The notes under the pieces are model-generated. The model was not told the origin of the DNA. It saw only the letters and a list, made by a program, of their open reading frames with translations, and did not search any database. The translations under genes were made by a program, and so were the position numbers. Positions 12,118 through 16,160 of a stretch of 64,000 nt of DNA are shown here, in pieces (position 1 is the stretch's first letter; each line of letters starts with the position of its first letter). The DNA is from Microbacterium sp. cf046 (GTDB taxonomy: Bacteria; Actinomycetota; Actinomycetes; Actinomycetales; Microbacteriaceae), in contig NZ_FOZJ01000001.1 in NCBI RefSeq assembly GCF_900114345.1, positions 1,054,001 to 1,118,000 on the forward strand. The letters are read 5' to 3'.

Positions 12118-13887
12118 TCACTTGGCGTCGTCGGTGGTGCCGAACAGCCCCTTGCCGAAGCGGCTGATCGCTTCGTAGGCCTCCGCGTACGTCTGCGGAG
12201 CCTTGCTGCCCGGATTGAATCGGGCCAGCAGCAGCCCGGTCAGTCCTTGCGCCGGGGCCGTGAGCGGACGGTGCTTGTGCTTGGTGGCCGCGGCGGCAGC
12301 GTCGTCCTCCTCCGGATTGCGCCCCTTGTAGAGCGCCTTCGGCTTGGGCCAGCTGTACGGCTGGCGGGGCTCCGTCAGGTTCACCGAGTTGAAGATCGGA
12401 TTCGCGCTCTGGTCGCGGAGCGTGAGCGGCGGCAGGCCGTGCTGGCGGCAGATCGTGTTGATCACCGACCCGTGATGCATCTCGTCATGGATCACCGTGT
12501 TCGGCGCGGTGTAGGCGCTGACCACGATCGTCGGGACGCGGCATCCCAGCCGGTCGAACGTGAATCCCATCTCACCCGATCCGCTGCGATCCGGTGGCGT
12601 CGCGGTCGGCGGGGGAACATGGTCGTACGTGCCGCCGTGCTCGTCGAAGGTGATGACCAGCGCGGTGTTCATCGCGTTCGAGCCTTTGGTCGCCTTGCTC
12701 GTGCGGATCGCGTCATAGACGTGCTGAACGAGCTTGTCGCCCGCGCGCACATCCGAGAGGGCGCTGTTGTACACCGGGAACATCCGGCCGTCGATCTCGA
12801 CGTCGTCCTCGTGGATCTTCTGGCCCCACGGCGGATGCATGTCGTTGTGGTTGAAGACCATGCGCGGCTCGATGAAGCTGTATGCGGGGAGGTCGCCGTT
12901 CTTGGCGTCCTCCAGGAACTGGCTCATCACGCGGAAGTGGGTCTTCCAGTACTGCTGCAGCACCGGCGCGTGCAGCAGTCCGGTCAGCGACACGAGCTGC
13001 GACGGGTCGTAGTAGATGCGCCACGGGATGCCGGCCTCTTCGAGCCGGTTGAAGATCGTGGTGGCGGGCGGGCCGTTGATCCACTTGTAGTAGCTGTCTC
13101 CACCGTGATTGGTGACGTACCCGTTCGATGTCGAGGCGTGGAAGAAGAGCCGGTTGCAGAACGTCTGCGAGGGCACCCCGGCGTGCCAGGCGTCGTACAC
13201 GGCGAACTCGCGGGCGAGCGTTGACAGGACCGGCATCATCTCGGGCGAGAATCCGCCCATCGCCACTTTGTACTCGGCGGCGGTCGGGAGCCTGCCCTTG
13301 TCCCGCTGGAAGTTGATCGCGAAGTCCCTCACGAAGCCGGACATGTCGGCCGTCGCCTCGATCGGCGGGGTGTTGAACGGCGGCAGCTGACTGTGGTGAC
13401 GGATGTCGGCGTTCGTCGGCGGGTCGACCGTGCCGAACAGCTGCGTGTTGACGTGGGGATACGTCTCACCCGGGTCGGGCTGCGGCGACTGCATGACCGT
13501 GTCGGTGGCGCCGTCGTACACATAGGCCGGAACCGTCTCGCCGTCGAGTCCGAGGTTGGAGTAGCTGCCCTGGGCGAGCCCGTCGAACTCGTCCTTGGAC
13601 TTCTCATCCGCCGTGTAGAGCCACCCGAGCATGTTGTCGAAGCTCCGGTTCTCGAACATCACCACGACGATGTGGTCGAATCCGGGCGTCGTGCGCTTGG
13701 GGAGCGGATCGAACTCGGGGGGATGCGCGGTCGCCGCAGCCGTGACCGCAGCTCCGGCGGCCCCGCCGATCGCGATGCCCGCCGCCCCGATGCCGGCTTT
13801 GCGCAGAAAGTCGCGGCGGGAGGTCGCCGGCGGCTCACCGGGTGAGGCCGGCGTGTTCGATTCGCTCACGGCCCCCCTAGATCGCAC
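12118..13887 (-). CDS. Tat-exported phosphoesterase, phospholipase C (PlcC/AcpA) family
   Basis: 589 aa from GTG 13887; GTG 13869 is an equally good start just after a G-rich SD-like run. The twin-arginine signal SRRDFLRKAGIGAAGIAIGGAAGAAV is near residues 23-50. The catalytic domain begins IVVVMFENRSFDNMLGWLY (metal-binding Glu-Asn) and later shows FDEHGGTYDHVPPP and MHHGSVINTICRQHGLP. These enzymes hydrolyse phospholipids or phosphomonoesters outside the cell. A TATACT -10 box lies at 13899-13904 on the minus strand, giving a short leader. Downstream is ugd. Confidence 0.88.
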   Translation of the reverse strand: MRSRGAVSESNTPASPGEPPATSRRDFLRKAGIGAAGIAIGGAAGAAVTAAATAHPPEFDPLPKRTTPGFDHIVVVMFENRSFDNMLGWLYTADEKSKDEFDGLAQGSYSNLGLDGETVPAYVYDGATDTVMQSPQPDPGETYPHVNTQLFGTVDPPTNADIRHHSQLPPFNTPPIEATADMSGFVRDFAINFQRDKGRLPTAAEYKVAMGGFSPEMMPVLSTLAREFAVYDAWHAGVPSQTFCNRLFFHASTSNGYVTNHGGDSYYKWINGPPATTIFNRLEEAGIPWRIYYDPSQLVSLTGLLHAPVLQQYWKTHFRVMSQFLEDAKNGDLPAYSFIEPRMVFNHNDMHPPWGQKIHEDDVEIDGRMFPVYNSALSDVRAGDKLVQHVYDAIRTSKATKGSNAMNTALVITFDEHGGTYDHVPPPTATPPDRSGSGEMGFTFDRLGCRVPTIVVSAYTAPNTVIHDEMHHGSVINTICRQHGLPPLTLRDQSANPIFNSVNLTEPRQPYSWPKPKALYKGRNPEEDDAAAAATKHKHRPLTAPAQGLTGLLLARFNPGSKAPQTYAEAYEAISRFGKGLFGTTDDAK

Positions 13888-14613: not shown

Positions 14614-14666
14614 TGGTGGAGGACTCAGGAATTGCACCTGCGAGGCGCCTCAAGTGCGCGTCCCCC
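14614..14666 (-). ncRNA. 53-nt tRNA-Ala-like mini-RNA (acceptor stem with G3:U70, T-like arm, encoded CCA)
   Basis: Read on the minus strand, GGGGGAC (14666-14660) pairs with GUCCUCC (14624-14618) over 7 bp with a single G:U wobble exactly at position 3:70, the main identity element of tRNA-Ala. Next come discriminator A (14617) and an encoded CCA (14616-14614). A T-like arm follows normal geometry: stem CAGG/CCUG (14640-14637, 14629-14626), a G:A mismatch at the fifth pair, and a 7-nt loop UGCAAUU with C56 and A58 equivalents. Between acceptor and T arm is one hairpin, either GCGC-(7-nt loop ACUUGAG)-GCGC or GAG-GCGC-CUC. There is no D arm. A TTGTCT-18-TACACT promoter ends 10 nt upstream. 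Divergent neighbour: a stand-alone AlaRS catalytic domain. What is seen is the fold and promoter; that it is an alanylated RNA is inference. Confidence 0.65.
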
Positions 14667-14676
14667 GAAGAGTTCG

Positions 14677-14706
14677 AGTGTATCGATCCCCCGGGGTGGT
14701 AGACAA
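14677..14706 (-). promoter_or_regulatory. Promoter for the tRNA-like RNA
   Basis: On the minus strand TTGTCT (14706-14701), an 18-nt spacer and TACACT (14682-14677). The start site is expected near 14671, leaving a 4-5 nt leader before the first acceptor-stem G, as for a small stable-RNA gene trimmed by RNase P. Confidence 0.6.
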
Positions 14707-14765: not shown

Positions 14766-16160
14766 ATGACCGCTGACGAGATCCGACGCATATTCCTCGA
14801 GTTCATGGCCGAGCGCGGTCACATCGTGATTCCCCGGGCCCCGCTGATCCCGAAGGACGATCCGACCACGCTGTTCACCGGGAGCGGGATGCAGCCGCTG
14901 CTGCCCTACCTGCTCGGCGCGGATCACCCGGCAGGTGCACGACTCGCCGACAGCCAGACGTGCCTGCGCGTCCAGGACATCGAGGAGGTCGGCGACAACC
15001 GCCATACGACCTTCTTCGAGATGCTCGGCAACTGGAGCCTCGGCGACTACTTCAAGCAGGAGCAGATTCCGCAGGTGTGGACGTTCCTCACCGAGAAGGT
15101 CGGCCTCGATCCCGCGCGCATCTACGTGTCGTGCTTCAGCGGCGACCCCGAGAACGGCATCCCGAAGGACGACGAGTCCGCCGCGATCTGGACGGGGCTG
15201 TTCGAGAAGGCGGGGATCTCGAGCGCGCAGGTGGATCTCGGAACGGAGGAGCACGCGGCTGCTGTCGGCACCGACGGTGCCCGGATCGCGTTCTACGGCA
15301 AGAAGAACTGGTGGTGCCGCGGCGGCAAGGCCGAGGACATGCCGGTCGGGGAGCCCGGTGGTCCCGACACCGAGATCTTCTACCTCTTCCCGACGGTGGA
15401 GCACGACCCCGCGTACGGCCGGCACTGCCATCAGAACTGCGACTGCGGCCGGTTCATCGAGCTCGGCAACTCGGTGTTCATGGAGTACCGACGCACCGAG
15501 TCGGGCTTCGAGCCGCTTCCGCGACGCAACGTCGACTACGGCGGAGGGCTCGCCCGCATCGCCGCTGCCGCGATGGACACTCCTGACGTCTTCCGCATCG
15601 GTCTGCTCTGGCCGATCATCGAGCGACTGCAGGAGCTCTCGGGGAAGACCTACGAAGACGAGACGCGCGCGATGCGCGTGATCGCCGACCATCTGCGCGG
15701 CGCGACCTTCCTCGCCGTAGACGGCGTGCAGCCGGGCAACAAGGCGCAGGGATACGTCATGCGCCGCCTCATCCGCCGAGCCGTGCGATTCGCGTTCGAG
15801 CTGGGCCTCGAGGAGAACTTCTTCCCCCAGATCATCCCGACGATCGCCGGAATCTACGAGGCGCACTTCCCCGAGGTCGCCGAACACGCCGAGTACGTCG
15901 AGCGCATCCTCGTGAAGGAGGAGCAGGCGTTCCGGCGGACCCTGCGGAAGGGCCTGAAACAGCTCAACGCGTACCGCGCCACCGGCGTCACAGGGCAGGA
16001 GCTGTTCGTCCTCTACGACACATACGGATTCCCGGTCGAGCTTTCCACGGAAGAGGCGGAGCGGAAGGGCATCGCCGTCAGCGCGGGCTGGCAGGCGGAG
16101 TTCGACGAGCAGATGGCCGCTCAGCGCGCCAGGTCGCAGCATCCCGTTCCGCACACCTGA
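14766..16160 (+). CDS. Stand-alone alanyl-tRNA synthetase catalytic domain (no editing or C-Ala domain)
   Basis: 464 aa against about 880 for full AlaRS. The N-terminus is typical: TADEIRRIFLEFMAERGH...LIPKDDPTTLFTGSGMQP. Class II motif 2 is HTTFFEMLGNWSLGDYF (about 79-95). Motif 3 is VDYGGGLARIAAA (about 256-268). The tRNA-recognition helices are RVIADHLRGATFLAVDGVQ and GYVMRRLIRRAVRFAFELG, then LYDTYGFPVELS. The protein stops just after the position where the E. coli fragment 461N, active on tRNA-Ala and minihelices, was cut. Editing domain and C-Ala are absent and no remnants follow, so this is a clean short form, not a fresh frameshift. WWCRGGKAEDMPVGEPGGPDTEIFY departs from the usual sequence. 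Start is fixed by the conserved N-terminus; the SD is weak. Divergent from the tRNA-like RNA. Confidence 0.88.
   Translation: MTADEIRRIFLEFMAERGHIVIPRAPLIPKDDPTTLFTGSGMQPLLPYLLGADHPAGARLADSQTCLRVQDIEEVGDNRHTTFFEMLGNWSLGDYFKQEQIPQVWTFLTEKVGLDPARIYVSCFSGDPENGIPKDDESAAIWTGLFEKAGISSAQVDLGTEEHAAAVGTDGARIAFYGKKNWWCRGGKAEDMPVGEPGGPDTEIFYLFPTVEHDPAYGRHCHQNCDCGRFIELGNSVFMEYRRTESGFEPLPRRNVDYGGGLARIAAAAMDTPDVFRIGLLWPIIERLQELSGKTYEDETRAMRVIADHLRGATFLAVDGVQPGNKAQGYVMRRLIRRAVRFAFELGLEENFFPQIIPTIAGIYEAHFPEVAEHAEYVERILVKEEQAFRRTLRKGLKQLNAYRATGVTGQELFVLYDTYGFPVELSTEEAERKGIAVSAGWQAEFDEQMAAQRARSQHPVPHT

What the first reader, a model, noticed from the sequence alone, without database searches (positions are those of the whole stretch)
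14614..14666. A 53-nt tRNA-Ala-like mini-RNA with G3:U70 next to a mini-AlaRS
Seen directly: on the minus strand a 7-bp acceptor stem with one wobble pair exactly at 3:70, A discriminator, encoded CCA, 7-nt T-like loop, no D arm, and a TTGTCT-18-TACACT promoter ending 10 nt upstream. The divergent gene encodes only the alanyl-transfer half of AlaRS. Established: AlaRS identifies tRNA by G3:U70 and can charge minihelices. Inference: this is a dedicated synthetase/mini-tRNA pair making alanyl-RNA for something other than decoding (donor for lipid, wall or peptide aminoacylation, or regulation). I know of no described system of this form.
Basis: partly seen in the sequence, partly recalled or inferred. 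Interest (0 to 1): 0.93.

Follow-up and report, generated by a model that had tools for sequence, protein, structure and literature searches.

The report
Alanine tRNA without an anticodon arm
Many actinobacteria, this one included, carry a conserved gene for a roughly 52-base RNA predicted to fold like an alanine tRNA that lacks the arm that reads codons, and this RNA likely carries alanine to membrane lipids rather than to the ribosome, in some species with a small, likely alanine-loading enzyme encoded right beside it.

Summary
The feature is real and conserved. The minus-strand RNA at 14617-14666 (plus encoded CCA) is one of a family; I aligned 48 copies (37 distinct). All 48 keep G3:U70; 99.8% of paired cells pair and 60 cells changed on both sides. 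The second hairpin is a D arm: D-loop 18 and T-loop 55 change together (G-U 31, A-G 6, no exception), with G19, C56, T54, A58 constant. The whole anticodon arm is missing. In the window no Rfam family reaches its curated score and ARAGORN finds nothing. In 394 class-level genomes the RNA is in 8, the short AlaRS in 8, both in 6. In Micrococcaceae the RNA lives without the short AlaRS (0 of 39). The short AlaRS keeps catalytic and G3:U70-reading residues. An MprF-type aminoacyl-tRNA:lipid transferase lies within 6-10 kb in 12 of 34 actinobacterial short-AlaRS loci, often with an esterase, sometimes with aspartate 4-decarboxylase, which makes alanine. Best reading: a non-decoding alanine carrier for lipid alanylation. 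Transcription, charging and lipid use are inferred. In the window genome the only transferase gene lies 796 kb away, and in Micrococcaceae it is near the RNA in 1 of 32.

The parts
14614..14666 (-). anticodon-armless tRNA-Ala-like RNA with encoded CCA (body 14617-14666, 50 nt)
   Evidence: read; R1 76.2 bits, R2 70.3 bits, both models trained with this copy; conserved family
14660..14666 (-). acceptor stem 5' strand GGGGGAC (G3 = 14664)
   Evidence: G1-A6 identical in 47 of 48 copies
14645..14659 (-). D arm GCGC-ACTTGAG-GCGC
   Evidence: covarying stem and 18/55 covariation
14625..14640 (-). T arm CAGG-TGCAATT-CCTGA (4 bp here, 5 bp in relatives)
14617..14624 (-). acceptor stem 3' strand GTCCTCC (U70 = 14620) and discriminator A73
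   Evidence: U70 in 48 of 48
14677..14706 (-). promoter-like TTGTCT-18-TACACT, 10 nt upstream of G1
   Evidence: read; a site of this kind precedes 28 of 48 copies against a mean of 1.07 in shuffles
14766..16160 (+). short AlaRS, 464 aa: aminoacylation and tRNA-recognition domains only
   Evidence: PF01411 360.6 bits; catalytic and G3:U70-reading residues kept

Best explanation
The minus-strand RNA at 14617-14666 belongs to a conserved family of tRNA-Ala-like RNAs predicted to have an acceptor stem with G3:U70, a D arm and a T arm but no anticodon arm, and it is likely charged with alanine by the short AlaRS encoded beside it and would then give that alanine to membrane lipids through an MprF-type transferase. 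Shown by sequence: the family, its covariation, the elbow positions, the missing anticodon arm, its linkage to the short AlaRS in some lineages, and the linkage of that enzyme's gene to transferase, esterase and aspartate 4-decarboxylase genes in some. Inferred: aspartate 4-decarboxylase supplies alanine, an AlaRS (the short one, or the housekeeping one in Micrococcaceae) loads the RNA through G3:U70, weak EF-Tu binding (A51-U63 in 35 of 37) keeps it from the ribosome, the transferase makes Ala-diacylglycerol or Ala-phosphatidylglycerol, and the membrane esterase turns it over.
For: RNA: 48 of 48 aligned copies keep G3:U70; 99.8% of 591 cells pair (shuffled 89.3%, 0 of 500 as high); 60 cells changed on both sides (shuffled 13.2, 0 of 500), 7 covarying pairs. 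Elbow: 18/55 G-U in 31 and A-G in 6 of 37 distinct; G19, C56, T54, A58 in 37 of 37. Promoter-like site in 28 of 48 (shuffled mean 1.07, max 5 in 200 rounds); CCA encoded in 31 of 48. Link to short AlaRS: of 394 genomes 6 have both, 2 RNA only, 2 enzyme only (Fisher 1.6e-10), and all six are adjacent (gaps 92-141 nt). Enzyme: E. coli G3:U70 readers N303/D400 (PMC10036535) = N325/D418, kept in 34 of 34 aligned of the 120 listed and 20 of 20; in 5 of 5 Saccharibacteria genomes a member of this family is the only AlaRS with a catalytic match, which suggests that the family works as an AlaRS. Lipid link: a PF09924 transferase within 6-10 kb in 12 of 34 actinobacterial short-AlaRS loci, 9 from one and 3 from the other of two branches of the tree; esterase in 8 and aspartate 4-decarboxylase in 3 of 34; none of the three in 63 saccharibacterial or unnamed-bin loci of the same enzyme family. 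In Micrococcaceae PF09924 is in 32 of 39 RNA+ and 7 of 20 RNA- genomes (p 5e-4). Precedents: MprF1 recognises a minihelix-Ala, and S. aureus non-proteinogenic tRNA-Gly carry A49-U65 and A51-U63 (passages of PMC4052509); C. glutamicum alaDAGS and pesT are tied to Ala-DAG and Ala-PG, and LysX carries its own LysRS (passages of PMC10580965).
Against: No transcript, charging or lipid data. In the window genome the only PF09924 gene is 796 kb away and no partner gene lies in the window. In Micrococcaceae 7 of 39 RNA+ genomes have no PF09924 hit, and in only 1 of the other 32 (G1242) is it near the RNA. 5 of 22 RNA-minus short-AlaRS loci also sit by the transferase, so the enzyme does not need this RNA there. 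Most copies keep G18 and G19 (31 of 37), unlike the S. aureus carriers, so only the T-stem half of that signature is shared. The 18/55 change may be one event in related species. The RNA-minus Micrococcaceae set was the 20 of 81 that the output listed; the 34 loci are 17 named ones and 17 of 26 unnamed ones that I chose; relatedness is not removed from the Fisher tests. The window copy lacks one T-stem base.
Confidence: 0.6

Rival explanations
1. The RNA is a charged alanine carrier, but the acceptor is not a lipid: for example Fem-type building of peptidoglycan bridges in Micrococcaceae, or a small molecule.
For: 7 of 39 RNA+ Micrococcaceae genomes lack a PF09924 hit, and it is near the RNA in only 1 of 32. 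Fem enzymes use Ala-tRNA (passages of PMC4052509). Alanine-containing bridges in Micrococcaceae are recalled. AcmF shows that AlaRS-like proteins can serve nucleoside antibiotics (PMC12945691, section 4).
Against: Lipid-transferase, esterase and alanine-making genes were seen beside the RNA or the short AlaRS in several lineages. Fem genes were not searched for, so their absence is not shown.
Confidence: 0.2
2. The RNA is regulatory: a decoy that binds AlaRS (or EF-Tu or SmpB) and reports alanine or charging state, without donating alanine.
For: It lies next to the short AlaRS gene in several lineages. It probably has its own promoter.
Against: Its position relative to the AlaRS gene varies (divergent, downstream, several kb away, or no short AlaRS at all). 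CCA is encoded right after the discriminator in 31 of 48 copies. G3:U70 is kept in all 48.
Confidence: 0.1
3. A decoding tRNA whose anticodon arm comes from elsewhere, or a tRNA remnant such as an integration site.
For: It resembles a tRNA 3' half, and tRNA 3' ends are common integration sites (recalled).
Against: Conservation and covariation over Microbacteriaceae, Micrococcaceae, Williamsia, Gordonia, Humibacillus and Pseudonocardia with the same short linker in place of the anticodon arm. A 26-base pattern of the Micrococcaceae/Williamsia type has no match in viral contigs; the window type was not scanned there.
Confidence: 0.03
4. A chance hairpin on the minus strand.
For: Single-sequence folding is not exceptional (18 of 200 shuffles as good).
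Against: Eight held-out loci at E 3e-14 to 3e-5 and 0 of 500 shuffles reaching the observed covariation.
Confidence: 0.01

Closest known systems
tmRNA tRNA-like domain (SsrA)
   Same: Alanine identity by G3:U70, acceptor and T arm, no anticodon (recalled).
   Different: Here the RNA is about 52 nt, free-standing, has a paired D arm and no mRNA-like part; no Rfam tmRNA match in the window or beside the L212 copy.
Staphylococcal non-proteinogenic tRNA-Gly for wall bridges (PMC4052509, passages)
   Same: Dedicated non-ribosomal amino-acid carrier; A49-U65 and A51-U63, said there to fit weak EF-Tu binding, are the commonest pairs here too (26 and 35 of 37).
   Different: Those are tRNA-Gly isoacceptors with 18/19 changed to UU or CU; most copies here keep G18 and G19, lack the anticodon arm and have alanine identity.
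LysX of mycobacteria and corynebacteria (PMC10580965, passages)
   Same: A lipid aminoacyltransferase with its own dedicated synthetase.
   Different: There the synthetase is a fused LysRS; no dedicated RNA is mentioned in the passages that I saw.
C. glutamicum AlaDAGS and pesT (PMC10580965, passages)
   Same: MprF homologue tied, with pesT, to Ala-DAG and Ala-PG. That PesT is an esterase is recalled.
   Different: No dedicated AlaRS or RNA is mentioned in the passages that I saw.
Tupanvirus mini-AlaRS (PMC10036535)
   Same: Only the aminoacylation half; charges acceptor-stem RNAs with G3:U70.
   Different: Lacks the Asn and Asp readers, which the short AlaRS here keeps; viral.
AcmF (PMC12945691, sections 4-5)
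   Same: Truncated AlaRS-like protein outside translation.
   Different: AcmF is said to lack most residues for ATP binding and alanine activation and the Asp-plus-Asn pair; the window protein keeps that pair and the class II residues checked.

Membership tests
canonical tRNA (Rfam RF00005) | 7-bp acceptor, discriminator, CCA | tested here: met
   CCA encoded in 31 of 48
canonical tRNA (Rfam RF00005) | D arm and T arm with elbow positions | tested here: met
   18/55 covariation, G19 and C56 in 37 of 37
canonical tRNA (Rfam RF00005) | anticodon arm | tested here: not met
   only a linker of about 4-5 nt between D and T arms in 48 of 48
canonical tRNA (Rfam RF00005) | match at curated threshold | tested here: not met
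   window: Rfam none, best 16.3 bits tRNA-Sec, E 0.77, ARAGORN 0
tRNA-Ala identity | G3:U70 | tested here: met
   48 of 48
tRNA-Ala identity | is aminoacylated with alanine | not testable with these tools
   needs an acid gel or charging assay
tmRNA | mRNA-like domain with tag peptide | tested here: not met
   no tmRNA in the window by ARAGORN or Rfam
AlaRS (class II) | PF01411 over gathering score | tested here: met
   360.6 against 30.3 bits
AlaRS (class II) | full-length equivalog model | tested here: not met
   380 of 529 and 368 of 457 bits: editing and C-Ala domains absent
AlaRS (class II) | motif 2 Arg, motif 3 Arg, active-site Asn and Asp (motif names recalled), G3:U70-reading Asn and Asp | tested here: met
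   identical in 20 of 20 aligned
AcmF-type AlaRS-like transferase | absence of the Asn/Asp G3:U70 readers | tested here: not met
   N325 and D418 kept
MprF/AlaDAGS lipid alanylation system | PF09924 transferase linked to the module | tested here: inconclusive
   12 of 34 short-AlaRS loci, but 796 kb away in the window genome and near the RNA in 1 of 32 Micrococcaceae genomes that have both
MprF/AlaDAGS lipid alanylation system | makes alanyl-lipid from this RNA | not testable with these tools
   needs lipid analysis

The most novel reading that the evidence does not exclude
A new class of natural RNA: a stand-alone tRNA that has shed its anticodon arm to become a dedicated alanine carrier outside translation, inherited across actinobacteria and, in several lineages, paired with its own synthetase of the Saccharibacteria-type AlaRS family and with a lipid-alanylation gene set.
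Probability: 0.6. Interest if true: 0.95.

Novelty: categorically new. Interest (0 to 1): 0.88.

Why it matters
If true, cells keep a second, non-decoding set of aminoacyl carriers, separated from translation by losing the anticodon arm. It would explain how alanine is diverted from the ribosome to lipids, give a natural test of the idea that the acceptor, T and D parts of tRNA can work alone, and add an RNA family that the gene finder and RNA library used here do not report. It also makes the question of how aminoacyl-tRNA is shared between translation and envelope synthesis directly testable in easily grown soil bacteria.

Tried and rejected
Minimum-free-energy folding of the window copy was uninformative. 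The plus strand as a leader of the AlaRS gene was rejected: 3:70 is G:U on the minus strand in all 48 copies and would be C-A on the plus strand, and the RNA is not always upstream of that gene. A mobile or viral origin found no support: no match in viral contigs for a 26-base pattern of the Micrococcaceae/Williamsia type, no short AlaRS in plasmids at E 1e-100. Of the 11 weak rows (E above 0.01) I looked at six and set them aside: L153 as a degenerate relative, L155 as an ordinary tRNA, L154, L156, L158 and L159 as chance; five rows were not looked at. A motif scan of 48 loci found no further G3:U70 RNA near RNA-minus short AlaRS genes; its other hits look like chance or ordinary tRNAs (3 hits in 20 shuffled loci). 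Divergent RNAs could still be missed, and searches of more than 40 genomes use stricter filters that lose weak matches. A first count of 13 transferase loci was lowered to 12 on checking: in L066 only the membrane half matches. Papers: the ten searches of open-access full texts; in their listings I saw no paper that describes this RNA or the short AlaRS of actinobacteria, but searches had more papers than were listed, and subscription papers and preprints are not held. Seen: PMC10036535 (abstract, passages, introduction), PMC12945691 (abstract, sections 4 and 5), PMC10580965 and PMC4052509 (passages; abstract starts in listings); all others as search listings.

Full report
What is in the window. 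The minus strand of 14614-14666 reads GGGGGAC-GCGC-ACTTGAG-GCGC-CTCG-CAGG-TGCAATT-CCTGA-GTCCTCC-A-CCA. The acceptor stem has one wobble, G3:U70. A TTGTCT-18-TACACT element ends 10 nt before G1. The divergent gene at 14766-16160 encodes 464 aa that match PF01411 over positions 1-430 of 552 (360.6 bits) and stop before the editing domain; the full-length AlaRS models are not reached. The genome has a separate full-length AlaRS on another contig. ARAGORN and Rfam at curated thresholds find nothing in the window, and the best lax Rfam match at the RNA is 16.3 bits.

Is it more than chance. Folding alone does not say so (z -1.45). Relatives do. A covariance model of these four and the window copy (R1) run over 70 sources found the RNA at eight held-out loci: three Pseudonocardia, one from a genome of the window's family, three Williamsia, one Gordonia (E 3e-14 to 3e-5). 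A second model from 15 copies (R2) was run on 394 genomes of the class and on 120 genomes of one family, both with stricter filters. That family is Micrococcaceae by the names of the closest relatives of one neighbouring mycothiol synthase (L207); 39 of its 120 genomes have the RNA at E 0.001 or better.

Anatomy. 48 copies, 37 distinct, were aligned to the model (A4); 31 of them are from Micrococcaceae, where 8 of the 39 hits had no fetched locus and were left out. Such an alignment leans to the model's structure; RNAalifold on it gives the same 16 pairs. 99.8% of 591 cells pair; 60 cells changed on both sides; sliding the partners by 1-3 columns drops pairing to 29-68%. G3:U70 is present in 48 of 48; pairs 2 to 6 never vary. 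The D stem appears as GCGC/GCGC, GCGT/ACGC, GCAC/GTGC, CCAC/GTGG and others. D-loop position 18 and T-loop position 55 are G-U in 31 and A-G in 6 distinct copies without exception, with G19, C56, T54 and A58 constant. This is the pattern of a tRNA elbow. Between D and T arms there is a linker of about 4-5 nt instead of an anticodon arm. So the RNA looks like a tRNA without its anticodon arm and could not read a codon by itself. A promoter-like site (TTG, 15-19 nt after the hexamer, TANNNT) precedes 28 of 48 copies, against a mean of 1.07 and a maximum of 5 in 200 rounds of mononucleotide shuffles of the same upstream stretches. CCA is encoded in 31 of 48. The window copy is one base short in the T stem.

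The short AlaRS. Actinobacterial members are 463-494 aa; members from Saccharibacteria and unnamed bins of the same family are 623-662 aa. In 5 of 5 saccharibacterial genomes that AlaRS is the only one with a catalytic match (one has in addition a 60-bit match to the end of the model), while 5 of 5 actinobacterial genomes in the same call also have a full-length AlaRS. Active-site residues and the Asn and Asp that read G3:U70 in E. coli (N303, D400; PMC10036535) are kept in 20 of 20 aligned proteins, one of them the genome's full-length AlaRS. In a quick maximum-likelihood tree of 55 rows (one of the 14 rows that I grouped as Saccharibacteria, L049, is titled only 'bacterium') the actinobacterial proteins fall in two places: one branch (13 rows, none with the RNA found in its flanks) lies inside Saccharibacteria with starred support, and the other 23 rows, 13 of which have the RNA, lie outside it. 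Three rows have long branches, so details are unsure.

Do RNA and enzyme belong together. Of 394 genomes of the class, 8 have the RNA, 8 the short AlaRS, 6 both (the two draws have the same size and the same visible handles; Fisher 1.6e-10, not corrected for relatedness); in all six the two lie 92-141 nt apart. But the RNA lives without the enzyme: 0 of 39 Micrococcaceae genomes with the RNA have it (38 show one AlaRS hit of 38-44% identity, one shows none at E 1e-40), and one genome of the window's family has the RNA beside an esterase gene and its short AlaRS on another contig. The enzyme also lives without the RNA: 23 of 36 actinobacterial rows (flanks searched 1.5 to 10 kb). The pair is therefore a frequent partnership, not a unit.

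What it serves. Neighbour genes point to lipid alanylation. I examined 34 actinobacterial short-AlaRS loci with flanks of up to 6-10 kb: all 17 named ones and 17 of 26 unnamed ones, chosen by me. In 12 there is a membrane protein with PF09924, the MprF transferase domain; in a thirteenth, L066, only the membrane half matches. A membrane esterase (PF00756) is in 8 of 34; aspartate 4-decarboxylase, over its curated cut-offs in the two that I scanned, in 3 of 34. None of the three is in 63 loci of the same enzyme family from Saccharibacteria and unnamed bins. With the window counted, 10 of 13 RNA+ loci have at least one of these genes and 7 have the transferase; the window and two others have none. 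Among 22 RNA-minus loci 5 have the transferase. Both branches of the tree contain transferase neighbours (9 and 3). The closest solved structures of the transferase domain include lysyl- and alanyl-phosphatidylglycerol synthases, so the amino acid is not told by similarity. In Micrococcaceae PF09924 is found in 32 of 39 RNA+ genomes and 7 of 20 RNA- genomes, two of these seven weak, but within 10 kb of the RNA in only one, G1242. In C. glutamicum an MprF homologue, AlaDAGS, with pesT, is tied to Ala-DAG and Ala-PG; LysX carries its own LysRS (passages of PMC10580965). An MprF1 recognises a minihelix-Ala, and the wall-specific tRNA-Gly of S. aureus have A49-U65 and A51-U63, said to fit weak EF-Tu binding (passages of PMC4052509). 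Here 51:63 is A-U in 35 of 37 and 49:65 is A-U in 26 of 37, while the 18/19 change of those tRNAs is not shared by most copies. The simplest story is a carrier that AlaRS can load, that an MprF-type enzyme can unload, and that the ribosome cannot use.

Limits. No expression, charging or lipid data were available. The window genome has its only PF09924 gene 796 kb away. Seven RNA+ Micrococcaceae genomes have no PF09924 hit, which leaves room for another acceptor such as peptidoglycan; Fem genes were not searched. Genome draws are not independent of phylogeny. The view that this is undescribed rests on Rfam 15 (window and one further copy), ARAGORN (window and 23 loci) and the listings of the ten paper searches named under Tried and rejected.

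Noticed in passing
L115, L117, L119, L120, L122, L124, L125, L128, L130, L131, L133, L138, L139: A second set of actinobacterial short AlaRS genes nests inside Saccharibacteria with starred support, suggesting transfer between Saccharibacteria and actinobacteria; three of these genomes (G410, G287, G235) have PF09924 beside it.
   Followed up: partly
L212-L240, L207, L208: In Micrococcaceae the RNA gene has a largely fixed place between a response-regulator-like gene and a mycothiol synthase gene (30 of 31 loci hold the synthase cluster).
   Followed up: partly
L151 (G824:C49:137327-137379): A second copy of the RNA in Williamsia sp. 1135, away from the short AlaRS and with none of the lipid genes in the 20-kb stretch around it (L184).
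   Followed up: no
L153:1501-1554 (G155): A degenerate-looking relative of the RNA (28.5 bits) with encoded CCA and a G3:U70 acceptor, in a genome with an RNA-minus short AlaRS.
   Followed up: no
L034 and L035: Humibacillus xanthopallidus KV-663 has two short AlaRS genes about 50 kb apart; only one has the RNA beside it.
   Followed up: partly
L039 and L040 upstream of the short AlaRS: A cobalamin-riboswitch-like leader reads divergently (by eye, recalled consensus; not run through Rfam).
   Followed up: no
window 12118-13887 (-): A phosphoesterase family protein (PF04185) with a weak, below cut-off TAT-signal match close to the RNA locus.
   Followed up: no
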